Shown here: positions 4,845 to 57,675 of the stretch, in pieces
Numbering within the stretch: position 1 is the first letter of the stretch
Layout of the letters: the number at the start of each line of letters is the position of its first letter
Assembly: GCF_000403645.1 (NCBI RefSeq)
Contig: NC_021313.1
Coordinates: 1,693,014 to 1,757,013 of the forward strand
Source of the DNA: Salinarchaeum sp. Harcht-Bsk1
GTDB taxonomy: Archaea; Halobacteriota; Halobacteria; Halobacteriales; Salinarchaeaceae
DNA: 64,000 nucleotides
Direction of reading: 5' to 3'
Made by a program: the position numbers and the translations under genes
The notes under the pieces: model-generated
Databases searched by the model: none
Seen by the model: the letters and a program-made list of their open reading frames with translations, nothing else
Told to the model about the DNA's origin: nothing

Positions 4845-7800
4845 ATGAATAAACGCCCCCGCACGTTGGAACCAACGAACGCCGATTCGTCTGGCGATCG
4901 GCTGCGGGGGCAGTCCGACGTCATCGCGATCGTCCTCTTGCTCGGCATGATCTTCATCAGCGCGACGGCCGTGATCCTGATGGGCGGCTTCATGGTCGAA
5001 AGCGTGCAGGATCAGTCACGCCACGACCTCGCCGTCGACAGTGCAGTCCAGACGCACCAGCAGATCGCGGAGGCGCTGGCGAGTGGCGAGGCGAGACGAC
5101 TTTCGGTTACCGACGCGGTCGACGTCCAGGTCAGGACGACCGGTTCGATGCGGGTCGAGATGCGTAACGCTGCCGGCGCGGCGTGCTCGGGCACGGTTTC
5201 GAACGTCAACCCCGTCGAGACGGATCTCGGATCGATCGTCTACGACACGCCAGAGGGGGAAGTAATCTACGAGGGTGGCGCAGTCTGGGAACGGACCGAT
5301 GCCGGGTTGTCGGTGCGGCGGAGCCCATCGATCAGCTACGACGGTGACACGGCGCGCATCGCGGTGCAGAGTGTTTCAACCAACGCCACCTCCCTCGATG
5401 GCGAGATCGCACGACCCGACGAGCGGCTCCAGCGGGCGCTGGCCCGGAACACGACGCGGATGCTCCGGGAGTGCCCCAGCAACGGGTTCACCGAGGTGAA
5501 CATCTCGCTCACGAGTCCGTACCACGAGCTCTGGGCCCAGCACTTCCACCGGCAGGTCGACACGACACCGAACGTCACTGTCTCGACGAGGGGCGACACC
5601 GTCTTCGCAACGATCGAGAACGCGACGACGGCCCACGCCTCTCGAGGACTCCGGTTCGACGGCTTCCACGCTCCACGTGTCGTCGGGCCGAACGGTCCGG
5701 CGCCGTTGCCCAATCACTTCAACGTCACTGCGTCCGTCACGAACGACGACTTCCGCCCACGCAACGCGACCGTCGAACTCGTGATAGACGGAAACGTCTG
5801 GACGAGCAGCGAGTTCGAGGTCCCGACGACCGGCAACGTAACCACGAGCCTGCCAGCATCGCCGCTCCACCGGCAGGCCGATCTCGTCAACCTACTGGGA
5901 CTCCAGCCCAGCCAGAGCCATCCCTACACCGTCCGATTGCTGGACGACGACGATGACGTGGTCAGTACGACCACGGGACGGTTCTTCCTCGAGGACGGTG
6001 GGGGCGGCAACGTGACGTTCTTCGACGACAGTCACACGCTCTCGAACGGCGAGCGGACCCTCAGCGTGAACGCAACGCTCATCAACACGTTCCCCTCGAA
6101 CGCGACGGGCGAGACCGTCGAGTTCCAGATCACCGACGAGGACGTCGACATGCCGTCGCCGGTCACTGCGCCCCTCGACGTTCCCGCGTACGGCGGCACC
6201 AAGGAGATCTCCTTCGACGTCAACGTCTCGAGTCTTCCAGCGGGCACCTACGACTACCAGCTCCGTCATCGCGGCGTTACGCTCAACCGGACGTTCACCA
6301 TCTCGACCCTCTCGGGCAGCGGGACTGTCGTCGGCGACCTCCGGGTGGAGTCGATCGACCCATCCGCGGAGTACGTCACCGTCGGCGATCCGTTCAACGT
6401 CAGCCTCCAGCTGTACAATACCGCGCAGAACGCGACGACCGCCGACGTCTCGCTCGATCTGCCGGGCGACGCAAGTCTGAGCCAGCAACAGTCCGTACAG
6501 ATCCCCGGCGGTGACCGCCGCACGGTCACGCTCGAGATCCCCGCCAATGACGTGGACGATCTCCCGACCCGACAGAGCCACGACTACAACGTCACCATCG
6601 AGCACGGCAACGACGAGCAGGGGTTCCCTGGAAGCTTCGTACTGCTCTACCCCGGCTCACACTTGCTGATCGAGGAGAACTCCACGACGCGGATCGGCGA
6701 CGACCGCTGGATCAACGTCACGCTCGCCAACCACGGTATGCAACCGAACGGCGACAACGTGACGTTCTCACTGTACGACGCCGACACCGGCGACCTGCTC
6801 GGCAGCACGGTCACCGACGAGATCAGTCTGGGTCGCGCGAACGCCACGGTACTTCCGTTCCGTCTGAACGAATCCAAACTCGGTGGATCCTACGAGTACG
6901 AGGTCGTGTACGGCTCCAATCCGCGTGGCGTCGCCACCGGCGAATTCACCGTTGACGGGACGAACCTCGGCAACGGTAACGTCTCGATCACCACGCCTGG
7001 GAACGGTTCGGTCACCGTGCTCGGGACGGAGGTGTCTGGCTACGACGACGGGTACTGCTGGCAGGATTGGTTCGGCAACTGGGACTGTACCCCCTCGGAG
7101 AAGCAGTGGTCTCCGATTACGGTCTCGACCGTTCTCGAGATCAACGGCACCGAGAACGCGAACCAGTTCGTCAATCACGCGAACGACGACCAGTACACCC
7201 ACGACGAGCACAATCTCAACACGTTCGACACCCAGACGGACACGTTCACGTACGATTGGTCGCTCGACGAGGGCGAGACCGCGAATCTCACCGTCCGCTC
7301 GCGTATCTGGTCGCTCACGACCGGCGGCTACCAGCACGTGCACACGCGGAGCGACAACGACCCGTCGACGCCCGACATCCACGACGAACACCCGCCGGAG
7401 AGTGCGTGGGACTCCCCGGCACGGGTGGTCGACGCCAGCCAGGGCTCCAACGTCGAATCGGTCCGCGTCCTCGGAAACGGTGACGCGGTGCCGAACGTCA
7501 ACGCCGCCTCCGACGACCAGCGCAGCGCCGCCGAGGTGCTCAACCAGGGTGCTGCGGATCGCGTCCACCCCAACGGAACGCTCGACCTCGGCCCCAACGA
7601 GGCCATCTTCCTCTTCGAGATGACCGACGACCCCGCCAACTACGGCGACATGTGGCAGGCTGCACACAACACGAACGGGGACCCGGACTACAACGACGTC
7701 ATCACACTGGTGAGTTTCAACCCCGACAACCCCGGCGACGTTCAGTTCCACATCGGCGATCACTCGCTCTCGATCGGACCGGCGCCGGACGATCCCCAGA

Positions 7801-8149: not shown

Positions 8150-11146
8150 ATGAGTAGGAGATCAGGTGCGGGCGGCGGGACCGAAGCGCGAACCGCCCGG
8201 CACCGGGGCCAGTCCGAGATCATCGGGCTGGTCCTGCTGCTCGGTGCGATCCTCATCGGGGCCTTCCTGACGATCGCGATCGGCGGCATGGCGCTCCAGT
8301 CGGTCCAGGAGAACGCACAGGGAGGGCTCACGCAGGACACCGCCCAGCAGGCGCACGCGGCGCTCTCCGAGGCGGCGGTCACTGGCGATCCCCAGGCGAT
8401 CCCGATGGGCGAGGGCCCGGTCGACGGTCGGCTCGTCGACGGTGGCACGCTCACGATCTCGATGCACGACGGGCCGGACACCTGTTCGAGAGCGGTTCGC
8501 GAAGAGCTCGGCGCGCTCCGGTACCAGGGTGGCGATCGTGCGGTGATCTACGAGGGCGGTGCGATCTGGGCGGAGACCGAGGCTGGGCTCGCGGTCGATC
8601 GCGCACCGCCGATCAGCTACGACGGTGGGACGACGCGCATCTCGGTGCTCTCCGTGTCGGCGGCCACGACGACCGACGACGGGCAGCTCGTCGCGCGACC
8701 GAACGAATCGGCGCGTCGGCGGCTCGCAGAGGAGACGTCCTCGCTCCTGACGGTGTGTCCCGCCCGGGACTACACGGACCTCCGCATCACCGTCTCCAGC
8801 CCCTACAGTGACGGCTGGGAGCGTCACTTCGAGCAACGGGTCAACACGACGTCGAACGTCACCGTCACTCGCCTGGACGACGACACCGTCCAGGCCACGA
8901 TCGAGAACGCCACCGAGCCCCGCGACTTCGATGGACTCGCGATCCCGTACGTCGGAGCGGCCGTTGCAGTGTCGCCCGGCGAACACTTTACGCCGGAGGT
9001 CCACGTCGCGAACGGCAACTACTCCGCCACGACCGGCACCGTCGAACTTCGGATCGACGGCACGTCGATAACCCGAACTCGGCCCGTCTCCGTCGACGCC
9101 TTCGACGTCAACCGGAGCACGAGCTTCAACGTCTCCTCGAGTACGATCAACGCGTCGTTGACCGTCGGCGAGACCTACAACTACACCGTCGCCGTTCGGA
9201 ACGACACTGGAACGACCGTCGACGCCAGGAACGGCTCGTTCGTGGCCGGCACCCACGGCCCGATGGTCCGGCTCACGAGGCTGAACGAGACGATGGACAC
9301 AAGTGAGCAACAGCTCACGATCGGGGCGGCCCTCCGGAACTACGGGCTCCAGAACGGCACGGGATCGGTCACACTCGAGTTCACCGATCCGGTCGTCGCG
9401 GCACCGAACCGGACGGCGAGTGGTATCCGCGTCAACGGCACCGGGACGACGACGGTGGGCTTCCAACTCGACGTGGGTTCACTCCCCGTCGGCCACTACG
9501 AGTACGCGGTCCACGGCCCCAACGGGACGCTGCACTCGGCGTTCGTGATCGGCAACCGCACGGAAACGACGCCGATCGCGGGCGACCTCCGCCTGCGAAA
9601 CGTCTCGACCGCCGGCACGACCGTCACCGAGGACGACGCCTTCACCGTCGATACGACCGTGGAAAACGTCGGCGGCGACCCCACGAACGGCGGGGTGGCG
9701 TTCCGACTCGAGGGCGGCCCCAACGCGAACGTCCCGGTCAGTCTCGACCCAGGCGAGCTGGGAAGCAACTCATTCTCCCTCTCGCCGAGTCAGGTGTCGG
9801 CACTGGAGACCGGCGAGACGCACGAGTACGAGATCGAACTCGCCTCGGGCAACGACACCGAGACGGTGACGGGCGCGTTCTACCTCGGCGAGTCCGGGAG
9901 CGCGCTCGGCGTCGAGGCACTGAACGCGACGCAGGACGACGGCACCGTCACGGTCGACGCCACGCTCGACAACGACGGCCTCGCGAACGCTACCGACAAC
10001 GCGACGCTGACGATGTACGAGGCGAACGGCTCCGGCGATCAGGTAACGTTCGCCGAGACGCCGACGCGGACGGTCTCGGTTCGCTGGGGCGCGACGAAGA
10101 CCGTCAGCTTCCAGTTCGACGGGAGTTCCCTCGGTGGCAATTACACGATCTCCGTCGACTACGGCAACGAGACGGGGAGCGACGTGGTGAACCTCGGCGC
10201 GCTCGAGGGGGGCGACGGGGACGTGGCGATCAGCGGCGCCGGGAACGGCACCGTGCGCGTCCTCGGAACCGAAGTCTCCGGCACCAACGACTGGTACGAC
10301 AGGAAGTACTGGGCCCCGATCAGCGTGACCTCGGTCCTGACCGTCGACGGGAGCCAGTCCCACCACACCTTCACCAACGACGAGACCGAGGATCCGGGCA
10401 GCCTCCACACGCTCACCAACCTCAACTCCTACGACACGCAGAACGCGACCTACTCGTACGACTGGACCCAGGAGGCAGGAGAAACCTCGACGCTCACGGT
10501 CGCCTCGACGCTCTGGTCCCGGTCGGGCCCGTGGGAGTACGCCAACACGCGGACCTACGGTGGCGAGACGTGGGAGGACTACCAGGCGGAGGCCTCGGCC
10601 TACGACGACGCGTACAACGAGGTCAACGCGAGTTCCGGTGACAACCCGTCGAACGTCCGCGTCCTGCTCGACGGCGACGACGTCCCGGGGGTCCACGCGG
10701 CTGGCGACCAGCAACGCAGCGCCGCGGAGATCCTCAACCAGGGTGCAGCCGACAGGGTGGACGACGACGGAACGCTCGACCTCGGGCCCAACGAGGCCGT
10801 GTTCCTCTTCGAACTGTCCGATCGGACGGCGACCTGGGCGGAGGCAGACGACGACCCGGGGGAGGACCCCGATTACAACGACGTCATCGCGATCGTCGAG
10901 TTCGAGACGCCCGACGGTGCCGTCCCCGTCGATATGGAGGTCACGGACGACGGCACCGGACTCGTGATCGGTTCGCCCTCGGTCACCGCCCCGTCGAACA
11001 CGACGATATCGCCGGGGAGCATCACGAACAGTTCGAGTTCGGGGGCGCCGGACGTCTACGCCCCCGGGGCGAACGGAACGCTCCCCGGCGGCCCGACGCC
11101 GCCTGAGGACGTCGACGTCTCGGTCGACGTGGTTACGCTGGGTTGA
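8150..11146 (+). CDS. Second giant pilin-like surface protein, tandem paralogue
   Basis: This 998-residue protein parallels its upstream neighbour domain by domain. It has RGQSEIIGLVLLLGA (about residues 23-37) as prepilin-peptidase site plus hydrophobic helix, and a shared segment around VIYEGGAIWAETEAGLAV. Asn/Thr-rich beta repeats follow, then the block NQGAADRV...GTLDLGPNEAVFLFE, then DPDYNDVIAI near residue 906, then a Ser/Pro tail and an EDVDVSVDVV ending. It lacks the Cys/Trp-rich insertion seen in the first copy (about residues 728-750 there). The 185-base gap before it includes a TATA-like TTATAC (8118-8123), so it may have its own promoter. A surface filament or adhesin role is inferred. 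Confidence 0.85.
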   Translation: MSRRSGAGGGTEARTARHRGQSEIIGLVLLLGAILIGAFLTIAIGGMALQSVQENAQGGLTQDTAQQAHAALSEAAVTGDPQAIPMGEGPVDGRLVDGGTLTISMHDGPDTCSRAVREELGALRYQGGDRAVIYEGGAIWAETEAGLAVDRAPPISYDGGTTRISVLSVSAATTTDDGQLVARPNESARRRLAEETSSLLTVCPARDYTDLRITVSSPYSDGWERHFEQRVNTTSNVTVTRLDDDTVQATIENATEPRDFDGLAIPYVGAAVAVSPGEHFTPEVHVANGNYSATTGTVELRIDGTSITRTRPVSVDAFDVNRSTSFNVSSSTINASLTVGETYNYTVAVRNDTGTTVDARNGSFVAGTHGPMVRLTRLNETMDTSEQQLTIGAALRNYGLQNGTGSVTLEFTDPVVAAPNRTASGIRVNGTGTTTVGFQLDVGSLPVGHYEYAVHGPNGTLHSAFVIGNRTETTPIAGDLRLRNVSTAGTTVTEDDAFTVDTTVENVGGDPTNGGVAFRLEGGPNANVPVSLDPGELGSNSFSLSPSQVSALETGETHEYEIELASGNDTETVTGAFYLGESGSALGVEALNATQDDGTVTVDATLDNDGLANATDNATLTMYEANGSGDQVTFAETPTRTVSVRWGATKTVSFQFDGSSLGGNYTISVDYGNETGSDVVNLGALEGGDGDVAISGAGNGTVRVLGTEVSGTNDWYDRKYWAPISVTSVLTVDGSQSHHTFTNDETEDPGSLHTLTNLNSYDTQNATYSYDWTQEAGETSTLTVASTLWSRSGPWEYANTRTYGGETWEDYQAEASAYDDAYNEVNASSGDNPSNVRVLLDGDDVPGVHAAGDQQRSAAEILNQGAADRVDDDGTLDLGPNEAVFLFELSDRTATWAEADDDPGEDPDYNDVIAIVEFETPDGAVPVDMEVTDDGTGLVIGSPSVTAPSNTTISPGSITNSSSSGAPDVYAPGANGTLPGGPTPPEDVDVSVDVVTLG

Positions 11147-29599: not shown

Positions 29600-30186
29600 G
29601 GAAGCCCCCTCCCGCTCGCGGCACCTCACTCGTTGCGCGCTTCGCTCGGCCGTCGGCCTCGCTGCAGTGCTTACTTCGTGACGAGCCGCGACCGGTCGGC
29701 CCCTCCCAATCCCACCCATTGATTATCCGCGGATCGCGAAACCCCGGTGGTCCACGTCGGCGCGCGCTGCGCATGGCTGCGAGCCCTCTCACGGGCGAGC
29801 AGCCAATCGCCGACGCCGTGCGAGGGCCGACCGAGCGAAGTCCTCGCAAGCGGCAGCGAGCGAGGGCTCGGAAGTCGCAGCCTGCGAGCGAAGCGAGCCG
29901 GAACGTCTTCCGGCGCGAGGGAGAAGGCTGGGGAGGAATGAGGCTGGTTTGGGTGGTCATCGAAAGGGGCCGGGCGGTCGGTCGTTCCCGGGCGAAGGTG
30001 AGCCGAGCAGCGCGAGGCGAACGTCGAAAGGTGAGCGAAGCGAATCTTTCGGAACAAGCACTGGAGCGAAGGAGCGAAAGCGACTGAGCGAAGCGCGCAG
30101 CGAGCCGCAGCCCTCGAGCACCGGGAGAGCGGAGCTCTCCCGAGCACGCGGGAGCTTCGCGCCCGCGAACGATCGGGGGCTTTCGG
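29600..30186 (+). repeat. Dispersed hairpin-ended repeat, copy A
   Basis: This full copy of about 587 bp fills most of the gap between the convergent COG2433 and small membrane-protein genes. The left end CGGAAGCCCCC and right end GGGGGCTTTCGG are inverted. The left hairpin has arms at about 29613-29630 and 29679-29696 (15 of 18 positions pair) around a loop containing TCGTTGCGCGCTTC and CTGCAGTGCTTACTTC. A central palindrome-like GCCGGAACGTCTTCCGGC is shared with copy B. The right unit is the longest of the three. No frame inside shows haloarchaeal codon bias. Confidence 0.8.
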
Positions 30187-39461: not shown

Positions 39462-39837
39462 GGTGGCTCCTCGGCGCCCGAGCGTCTTGGGCGTTCGGTC
39501 CTCACGCGAATGAGGCGTGGCCTGGGAGTTGCCGATAGCGAACCGCTTGGAAGCCCCCTCCCGCTCGTGCCCGCTCACTCGTTGTGCTCCTCGGCTACGC
39601 TCACTGCGTTCGCTCCGCCTGCGGTGCTTACTTCGTGAGCGAACACGAGCGGTCGGCCCCTTCCATTCCCACCCGATCGTGCATGGTCGACGCTCGCGAC
39701 ACCCCGGTGGACGGACCGGCCGAGCGCGGCGGCGCCGGTGGGTTTCGCTCGCGTTGGGCGGTCGGAGGGGATCACTTTCGCCGCGGGGGACGCGAACTCT
39801 TTACCGCTCGGCGTCCGAACGCCTGCCAGATACCACC
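39462..39837. other. Divergent intergenic region holding half repeat D
   Basis: This 376-base gap lies between UPF0179 and the helicase. Its centre is a half copy of the dispersed repeat (39549-39730). Downstream of the repeat, ACTCTTTACC at about 39797-39806 is a possible promoter element for the helicase. An overlapping long open frame continuing into the helicase has no coding character. Confidence 0.45.
39549..39730 (+). repeat. Dispersed hairpin-ended repeat, half copy D
   Basis: The left unit is complete: GGAAGCCCCC, then an 18-base arm at about 39561-39578 pairing 16 of 18 positions with about 39635-39652, then GGTCGGCCCCTTCC. The loop retains TCGTTG and GGTGCTTACTTC. A piece of the central region (ACACCCCGGTGGACGG) follows, but the right hairpin unit is absent. 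Confidence 0.7.
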
Positions 39838-42144: not shown

Positions 42145-42617
42145 TGGAAGCCCCCTCCCGCTGACGGCTTCTAACTCGTTGCGCGCTTCACTCGCTCCCG
42201 TCGGTCGCTCGCTGCAGTGCTTACTTCGTTACAAGCCGCCAGCGGTCGGCCCCTTCCAGTCCCCCCGATGGCATTTGCTCAGCATCGCGATACCTCGGTG
42301 GACCTCCTCGGCGCGCGCTGGCGCCGGCTGCGAGCCCCGAAGCGGGTGAGCAGCCGGTCGCGGGACACCGTGCGAGGGCCGACCGAGCGAAGTCCTCGCG
42401 AGCGGCAGCGAGCGAGGGCTCGGAAGTCGCAGCCCGCGAGCGAAGCGAGCCGGAACGTCTTCCGGCGCGAGGGAGAAGGTTGGGGAGGAGTGAGGCAGTT
42501 TTGGTGGACATCGAAAGGGGCCGGGCGCTGAGCGATTGTAACGACGCAAGCACCGCAGCGACCGAGGGAGCGAGGAGCGCAGCGAGTTAGAATCGCTCAG
42601 CGGTCGGGGGCTTTCGG
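42145..42617 (+). repeat. Dispersed hairpin-ended repeat, copy B
   Basis: A full copy of about 473 bp between the convergent helicase and 2H phosphoesterase genes. The left arm at about 42158-42175 pairs 16 of 18 positions with about 42230-42247. The right unit contains GCTGAGCGATT and, near its end, AATCGCTCAGC, a perfect 11-bp inverted pair. The outer ends are GGAAGCCCCC and GGGGGCTTTCGG. The central part is nearly identical to copy A for more than 100 bases, including GCCGGAACGTCTTCCGGC. Confidence 0.8.
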
Positions 42618-55556: not shown

Positions 55557-55989
55557 CGGAAGCCCCCGACCGCTCGCGTGGCCTGACTCGTTGCGCGCTT
55601 CGACTCGTTCGCTACGCTCACTCGTCTGCAGTGCTTTCGTCGTCAGGCCACGCGAGCGGTCGGCCCCTTCCAGTCCCACCCGGTGACGTTTGCCCAGTTT
55701 CACAATACTCCGGTGGCCATCACCGGCGCGCGCTGTGTGACGGCCGCGAGCCCCGAAGCGGGCGAGCGGCCGATCGCCGAAACCGTGCGAGGGATGAGCA
55801 GCGCAGTGGTGACCGAAGGGAACCCGAGCAGCGCAAGAGGCTGGGGAGGATCGAGGTGCGGTGGGCGGGACTTCGAAAGGGGCCGATCGCTCGACGGTGC
55901 GAGGCGAAGCAAGCACCGCAGGGAGGGAGCGAAGCGACTGACTGAGGAGCACAGCGAGCCGCAGCCCTCGAGCGGTCGGGGGCTTTCGG
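55557..55989 (+). repeat. Dispersed hairpin-ended repeat, copy C
   Basis: A full copy of about 433 bp between convergent argF and ftsY. It has the best structure. The outer ends CGGAAGCCCCCGACCGCTCG (55557-55576) and CGAGCGGTCGGGGGCTTTCG (55969-55988) are near-perfect inverted repeats. In the left unit, 55566-55587 and 55642-55663 are perfectly complementary over 22 bases around a 54-base loop. The right unit holds a further small hairpin CGGTGC...GCACCG. The central part is shorter and diverged relative to A and B. Confidence 0.85.
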
Positions 55990-57210: not shown

Positions 57211-57675
57211 TCACTCGCCGTCGCCTTCGCCCTCGCCGCCCATGCCCTGCATCTGCTGCATCTGCTGTTGCATCTGCTGTTGCTGCATCTGCTGCATCTG
57301 CTGTTCCATCTCCTCGAGGGTGTCCTCGAGGTCGTCGATGTCCGCCTCGAACTCGTCGATGCGGTCGTCGATGGTGTCCTGCTTCGAGCGCAGGGTCTCG
57401 ACGGCGTCCTCCTGGTCGCGTTCGGCGGCGTAGCCGCCGCCGAGGCCGACGATGATCTCGTCGGCGTCCTCGACCTCCGCGCGGACGTAGGCGTCCCCGC
57501 CGAGGGGGACGTGGACCGTCTCGCCGGTCTCGATGGCCTCGACGGCCTCGACGGCCTCGTCGATCTCGTCCTGCTCGTCTTCGAGCCCCTCGATCTCCTC
57601 GCCGACGAGTTCGATCTGCTGCTCGACCTCCTGGATCTGCTCCTGGATCTCCTGCATCTCCCCACGTCCGCTCAT
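57211..57675 (-). CDS. pfdA: Prefoldin alpha subunit
   Basis: The 154-residue chaperone subunit has two long coiled-coil helices (MQEIQEQIQEVEQQIELVGE and VETLRSKQDTIDDRIDEFEA) around a beta core (VHVPLGGDAYVRAEVEDADE, VGLGGGYAAERDQEDA). A Gln/Met-rich tail of QQM repeats before GGEGEGDGE is a local oddity. It hands unfolded proteins to the thermosome. Its ATG overlaps the rpl18a stop by two bases. Confidence 0.95.
   Translation of the reverse strand: MSGRGEMQEIQEQIQEVEQQIELVGEEIEGLEDEQDEIDEAVEAVEAIETGETVHVPLGGDAYVRAEVEDADEIIVGLGGGYAAERDQEDAVETLRSKQDTIDDRIDEFEADIDDLEDTLEEMEQQMQQMQQQQMQQQMQQMQGMGGEGEGDGE

What the first reader, a model, noticed from the sequence alone, without database searches (positions are those of the whole stretch)
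29600..30186. Dispersed 430-590 bp non-coding repeat family with hairpin-tipped inverted ends
Copies at 29600-30186, 42145-42617 and 55557-55989 share the same order of parts. These are an outer end GGAAGCCCCC, a long hairpin, GGTCGGCCCCTTCC, a central region, CGAAAGGGGCC, a second hairpin, and GGGGGCTTTCGG. The right unit is an inverted version of the left, so each full copy is a large palindrome whose two ends are themselves hairpins. None carries a frame with haloarchaeal codon bias, a transposase, or visible target duplications. It resembles a MITE or a structured RNA but matches no class I can name.
Basis: seen in the sequence. Interest (0 to 1): 0.85.

Follow-up and report, generated by a model that had tools for sequence, protein, structure and literature searches.

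The report
Haloarchaeal intergenic DNA hairpin element family
The genome is dotted with about 100 copies of a long imperfect palindrome that folds into a conserved hairpin, sits in the gaps between genes, and recurs in most salt-loving archaea but not in other members of their phylum; I found no published description of it.

Summary
The three window copies are inverted pairs of ~105-225-nt hairpins. A fourth copy, a single hairpin plus tail, lies at 39549-39713.

The window is from Salinarchaeum sp. HArcht-Bsk1. A covariance model of the hairpin finds ~100 units at 74 loci in this genome. It finds matches in 111 of 145 haloarchaeal genomes, often dozens per genome, and in 0 of 67 other genomes of the phylum.

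The stem is supported by covariation: 95.7% of cells pair, 13 of 24 pairs change on both sides, no shuffle reaches the score. G.T pairs are rare (1.1%, against 7.1% in haloarchaeal tRNA stems), which favours DNA structure over RNA.

Copies lie ~105 nt upstream of start codons and ~55 nt downstream of stops. They often keep their position between species, are lost by deletion, swap stems between loci, and are enriched at inversion breakpoints. I found no target duplication and no gene-bearing relative; the genome has no Y1 transposase.

Best reading: an ancient family of extragenic DNA palindromes, REP/BIME-like in anatomy but not a member, acting as DNA cruciform/hairpin sites in untranscribed spacers and as recombination substrates. 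The molecular role is inferred. New variant of a known kind.

The parts
29600..29758 (+). Short (S) unit of doublet 1: hairpin GGAAGCCCCC..GGTCGGCCCCTCCC (29600-29707) plus tail ending near CCCCGGTGGTCCACGTC
   Evidence: CM hit G000:1722611-1722722, 6e-18
29759..30185 (-). Complex (C) unit of doublet 1: multi-hairpin tail (GGCGCGCGC..GTGCGAGGG..GGCTGGGGAGGA) plus terminal hairpin 29962-30184, whose loop carries nested extra palindromes
39549..39713 (+).
   Evidence: same position in the congener
42146..42309 (+). S unit of doublet 2: hairpin 42146-42257 plus tail
42310..42616 (-). C unit of doublet 2: tail 42310-42512 and hairpin 42513-42615; the doublet lies at a synteny breakpoint with Salinarchaeum laminariae
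55558..55724 (+). S unit of doublet 3: hairpin 55558-55671 plus tail
   Evidence: CM hit 6e-23
55725..55988 (-). C unit of doublet 3: tail 55725-55874 and hairpin 55875-55987; doublet is conserved between argF-like and ftsY-like genes in S. laminariae
   Evidence: 50c

Best explanation
These are copies of an ancient, haloarchaea-restricted family of long extragenic palindromes that act at the DNA level. SHOWN: each unit is a ~105-120-nt hairpin (longer when the loop holds nested palindromes) with conserved ends, a conserved CCC/CCC internal loop and a conserved asymmetric loop near the tip. Between these, stem sequence is free to change but stays Watson-Crick paired. Units occur singly or as inverted pairs. 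They lie in spacers at a fixed offset from start and stop codons. Many keep their position between species, are lost by deletion, exchange stems between loci, and coincide with rearrangement breakpoints more often than chance. INFERRED: the palindrome extrudes as a cruciform (or folds when single-stranded at the replication fork) in the untranscribed spacer. There a structure-specific or nucleoid protein recognises its unpaired loops, giving a BIME-like role in local topology or gene insulation. The same structure and the dispersed homology promote gene conversion and inversions between copies. The protein and the physiological effect are unknown.
For: Family size and range: ~100 units at 74 loci here; 111 of 145 haloarchaeal genomes have a match; in the phylum sample 12 of 13 haloarchaeal and 0 of 67 other genomes do. 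Structure: 95.7% of cells paired, 13 of 24 pairs with two-sided changes, covariation score 0.40 against 0.12 in shuffles (0/500 reach it), collapse when partners are slid by 1-3 columns. Orthologous Halorubrum copies next to a predicted msrA gene show matched changes on both arms, including a 1-nt deletion on both arms. DNA rather than RNA: G.T is 1.1% of pairs and rarer than A.C, against 7.1% G.T in 41 tRNAs. Placement: start-facing ends at 107 nt (IQR 94-125) from start codons, stop-facing ends at 56 nt from stops; 71% of start distances fall in 80-125 nt against 21% for uniform placement. The H. volcanii median 3'-UTR is 58 nt (PMC7237163) and 72% of its protein-coding transcripts are leaderless (PMC4983044). 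Position kept: about two dozen loci have both flanks matching the same element locus in S. laminariae. Recombination: 11 of 36 small breakpoint intervals contain an element against 2.2 expected (rotation p = 0.001); adjacency-level odds ratio 7.6, p = 3e-5. Chromosomal bias: the IMG/VR exact-pattern scan found nothing; few plasmid copies.
Against: No protein, binding assay, supercoiling data or RNA-seq could be examined. Two-sided change with few intermediates could also come from template-switch correction of palindromes or from whole-stem replacement, without selection at each locus. Two of the six window hairpins folded are weak as single-stranded DNA (left hairpin of doublet 2, z = -1.4; left hairpin of doublet 1, z = +1.0). 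About a quarter of haloarchaeal genomes have no match at this sensitivity, so the family is not essential. The breakpoint association weakens when only spacers of at least 150 bp are compared (odds ratio 3.4, p = 0.045). Gene positions are from my own codon-based gene calls, not an annotation.
Confidence: 0.45

Rival explanations
1. A non-autonomous mobile element (MITE-, PATE- or REPIN-like) with hairpin ends, moved in trans by an unidentified transposase, now mostly fossil.
For: Multicopy, dispersed, intergenic, inverted ends, solo and paired forms; copy number varies widely between genomes; some copies on large haloarchaeal plasmids; haloarchaea are rich in MITEs and PATEs (PMC3119063).
Against: Element-free alleles are deletions with remnants, not clean sites with duplications; positions conserved between species; no + ... 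- pair around a gene in the own genome; no Y1 transposase in G000, G001, G006, G010 or G033, all of which have dozens of copies; copies only ~70-85% alike; exact-pattern scan of viral contigs empty.
Confidence: 0.28
2. A structured non-coding RNA or bidirectional transcription terminator / 3'-end element.
For: Strong conserved secondary structure; doublet 3 folds far better than shuffles as RNA (z = -8.5); all three window doublets lie between convergent genes; hairpins can terminate transcription in H. volcanii (PMC7237163).
Against: Genome-wide there is no strong convergent bias (43 tandem, 16 convergent, 14 divergent, against 245/59/64 in the background); G.T pairs depleted; units begin ~55 nt after stops, about where transcripts are expected to end; no Rfam match at gathering score.
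Confidence: 0.15
3. Functionless palindromes kept paired by template-switch correction and spread by ectopic gene conversion.
For: Whole stems swapped at orthologous loci while flanks stay; matched deletion on both arms; few mismatched intermediates.
Against: Unpaired features (CCC/CCC loop, CTCGYTGYG / GTGCTTNCKTCG loop, a mismatch shared by five Halorubrum orthologues) are conserved rather than corrected; tight placement relative to genes; conservation across haloarchaeal families.
Confidence: 0.12

Closest known systems
REP / BIME / REPIN (bacterial extragenic palindromes; described e.g. in PMC2817692, PMC3116915)
   Same: Intergenic imperfect palindromes, singly or as inverted pairs, many copies per genome.
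   Different: Units are ~105-120 nt with GGAAG/GAAAG ends and a conserved CCC/CCC internal loop, with S and C tails. The REP-associated Y1 transposase family is absent from this genome, its congener and several other high-copy genomes.
PATEs of Haloquadratum (palindrome-associated transposable elements; PMC3119063)
   Same: Haloarchaeal, non-coding, palindromes near the ends, no target duplication.
   Different: PATEs lack inverted terminal repeats and are related to IS605-type transposons. Here the two ends are inverted homologues, no Y1 gene is present, and positions are conserved between species.
SMR-A small mobile repeats of Haloquadratum (PMC3119063)
   Same: ~110 bp, prominent inverted ends, no target duplication, unknown mobiliser.
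   Different: SMRs are highly conserved within a type (commonly >95% identity) and SMR-A insert into PATEs and IS605-type elements. These copies are ~70-85% alike, lie in ordinary gene spacers and are shared across haloarchaeal families.
Integron attC sites (from general knowledge)
   Same: Hairpins whose structure, including unpaired bases, is conserved more than sequence.
   Different: No gene-cassette arrays were seen, and an integron integrase was not searched for.

Membership tests
REP/BIME/REPIN | Intergenic imperfect palindrome in many copies, partly as inverted pairs | tested here: met
REP/BIME/REPIN | REP-associated Y1 transposase (RAYT) in the genome | tested here: not met
   PF01797: 0 matches in G000, G001, G006, G010, G033
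REP/BIME/REPIN | Short unit (about 20-40 nt) | tested here: not met
   Units are about 105-120 nt
PATE (IS605-derived) | No inverted terminal repeats; ends match IS605-type transposons | tested here: not met
   Ends are inverted homologues; no Y1 transposase in own genome. TnpB genes were not searched for.
MITE | Terminal inverted repeats related to a known transposon | tested here: inconclusive
   Inverted ends present; no gene-bearing copy in own genome; ISfinder not available
MITE | Target-site duplication / clean empty sites | tested here: not met
   Element-free alleles in HArcht-Bsk1 and Halorubrum are deletions with remnants
Known RNA family (Rfam 15) | Match at curated gathering score | tested here: not met
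   (only sub-threshold matches, mostly microRNA-precursor look-alikes)
Functional RNA helix | G.U pairs tolerated more than A.C | tested here: not met
   10 G.T against 23 A.C in the hairpin helices; tRNA control 7.1% G.T
Integron attC | Recombined by an integron integrase in cassette arrays | not tested
   No integrase search was made; no cassette arrays seen around copies
Nucleoid or gyrase-type binding site | Binding by a chromosomal protein | not testable with these tools
   Needs pull-down or ChIP

The most novel reading that the evidence does not exclude
Haloarchaea carry a dedicated DNA-hairpin system: dozens of chromosomal palindromes per genome, read by structure rather than sequence by a conserved protein, which mark the boundaries between transcription units and let stem cassettes be swapped between loci and the chromosome be rearranged at these sites.
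Probability: 0.2. Interest if true: 0.85.

Novelty: new variant of a known kind. Interest (0 to 1): 0.62.

Why it matters
If right, a large share of the structured intergenic DNA of a whole archaeal class has gone undescribed. It would give archaea a counterpart of bacterial REP/BIME elements without the transposase that explains those. The matched changes and stem swaps at orthologous loci are a natural experiment on how palindromes are maintained in polyploid, recombining chromosomes. The link to inversion breakpoints gives a testable cause for gene-order turnover in haloarchaea.

Tried and rejected
Convergent-gene bidirectional terminator: suggested by the three window doublets, rejected as a general rule by genome-wide context.

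REP/RAYT or IS200-type mobilisation: Y1 family absent from the own genome and several high-copy genomes.

Known RNA: Rfam scans without a match at gathering score.

Virus-borne element: exact-pattern scan of IMG/VR empty; a relaxed pattern was not tried.

Replication-terminus clustering: loci are concentrated in the middle of the contig (51 of 74 between 1.14 and 2.45 Mb, counts), but sampled GC skew gave no clear origin/terminus and the first genes of the contig did not settle where it starts, so no claim is made.

Empty site at G000 661366-661503: read at first as a clean insertion site, but it keeps a degenerate linker, so a deletion is more likely.

G-quadruplex repeats of archaea (PMC8044849) and the REP catalogue of RepRanger (PMC12306157): different sequences or taxa.

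Full report
OBSERVATION. The repeat finder adds a fourth copy at ~39549 that has the left hairpin and the start of the centre only. The window is G000:C1:1693014-1757013 of a 3,255,260-bp single-contig genome. That length and type match Salinarchaeum sp. HArcht-Bsk1 (PMC3715672). The nearest genome, G001, appears to be S. laminariae R26 (L195 shows the same hairpins).

FAMILY. A blastn search with copy 2 gives 90 matches in the genome; 62 hairpin units were extracted by their ends. A covariance model R1 from 51 units finds about 100 units, grouped here into 74 loci. With R1, 22 of 40 relatives and 111 of 145 haloarchaeal genomes have matches. In a phylum-wide sample 12 of 13 haloarchaeal and 0 of 67 other genomes match. 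Copies elsewhere keep the same plan: (C)AAAGCCCC - stem - CTCGCTGYG ... GTGCTTNCGTCG - stem - GCCCCTTT - AGTCCCACCC.

ANATOMY. Two kinds of unit share the hairpin. In Halorubrum-type genomes the dispersed unit is a hairpin followed by CCTCACGCCTCCCCAGCC - hairpin - TCCCTCGCG - hairpin - GGCGCGCC (dispersed matches end at the same points). In Salinarchaeum, solo units are hairpin plus AGTCCCACCC...CCCCGGTGGA. The window doublets are one solo-type and one Halorubrum-type unit meeting tail to tail. This division is my reading of the alignments.

STRUCTURE. On 51 units 95.7% of cells are standard pairs against 80.2% in shuffles. 196 cells have changes on both sides against 58 in shuffles, and the score falls from 0.40 to below 0.1 when partners are slid. 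At one orthologous spacer beside a predicted msrA gene in five Halorubrum species the two arms differ by one or two positions within each species although the arms differ between species, including a one-base deletion made on both arms. One mismatch is shared by all five. In the hairpin helices G.T pairs are 10, A.C 23 and Watson-Crick 910; in 41 tRNAs from the longer sequences held here G.T is 7.1% of pairs (A.C is not counted there because the program marks only pairs). This favours a structure acting or maintained as DNA, whichever strand is read. As single-stranded DNA, four of six window hairpins fold clearly better than shuffles (z -2.3 to -7.9), one weakly (-1.4), one not (+1.0).

CONTEXT. 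Gene calls are mine (codon log-odds). Spacer types are 43 tandem, 16 convergent, 14 divergent against 245/59/64 in the background. Start-facing element ends are at 107 nt (IQR 94-125) from start codons, stop-facing ends at 56 nt from stops; uniform placement would put 21% rather than 71% of start distances in 80-125 nt. In H. volcanii the median 3'-UTR is 58 nt (PMC7237163) and 72% of protein-coding transcripts are leaderless (PMC4983044). By analogy the copies occupy the part of the spacer that is neither transcribed nor core promoter. Solo hairpins mostly point their outer end at a gene start.

EVOLUTION. Of the S. laminariae element loci whose two flanks both match held HArcht-Bsk1 sequence, about two dozen match the two sides of one element locus and seven are rearranged (count by eye). 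The argF-ftsY doublet is orthologous, but its left stem has been replaced wholesale while the ends, flanks and right hairpin stay. The same replacement is seen at one spacer in four Halorubrum genomes; in others at that spacer the hairpin is partly or wholly deleted, with remnants. No target duplication was seen. In a 400-kb region, 11 of 36 small breakpoint intervals contain an element (2.2 expected by rotation, p = 0.001) and gene adjacencies with an element are broken more often (odds ratio 7.6, p = 3e-5; 3.4, p = 0.045 when only spacers of at least 150 bp are compared). Doublets 1 and 2 of the window are at such breakpoints, doublet 3 and the solo are not.

MOBILITY. Family PF01797 is absent from G000, G001, G006, G010 and G033, and present in some genomes with few or no copies. 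No gene-bearing version was seen in the own genome. An exact-pattern scan of IMG/VR gave nothing. The Salinarchaeum element matches 20 plasmid records, all predicted non-mobilizable; the Halorubrum element matches 3.

LITERATURE. Paper searches found PATEs and SMRs of Haloquadratum as the nearest described elements and no description of this family. The library lacks most subscription journals, so absence is not proof.

CONCLUSION. Shown: a class-restricted, positionally persistent family of structured extragenic palindromes with stem turnover and an association with rearrangement. Inferred: a role as DNA cruciform/hairpin sites in spacers. Ancient mobility may explain the first spread, and I rate that as the main rival.

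Noticed in passing
window 29960-30185 (loop of right unit); L025 hairpin at G000 1493302-1493475; L036 hairpin at G000 1488986-1489144; L147 near G001 647928: The apical loops and linkers of many hairpins carry nested ~45-60-nt double palindromes (e.g. GAGAGAGCGAAGCCCTCTCGTGATCACGAAAGGCGCTTCGCGCCTTTC). One in S. laminariae lies between two AGTCCC copies, as if duplicated on insertion. They look like a second, smaller element family.
   Followed up: partly
G000:C1:1430000-1835000 against G001:C1:610000-1010000: Gene order is heavily rearranged between the two Salinarchaeum species here (38 breakpoints in ~400 kb), and the palindrome loci are also densest around this part of the contig.
   Followed up: partly
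L262, L237, L240, L259 (Halorubrum spp.): A predicted msrA gene near ftsY is flanked on both sides by these hairpins, outer ends facing the gene, in several Halorubrum species; shortened copies of the outer end (CAAAGCCCCAGCCGCTCGG) repeat just outside.
   Followed up: partly
outer flanks of Halorubrum copies (L237, L259, L262): TTTATAA-type motifs recur ~40-45 nt outside the hairpin and at the far end of the unit in some copies; they could be promoters or element termini.
   Followed up: no
window 57247-57314 and 57610-57662: Short-period CTGCATCTGCTG-type repeats in a predicted minus-strand coding region next to ftsY.
   Followed up: no
window 7461-7627 and 10655-10821: Two 167-bp stretches 77% identical, 3.2 kb apart, probably paralogous coding sequence.
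   Followed up: no
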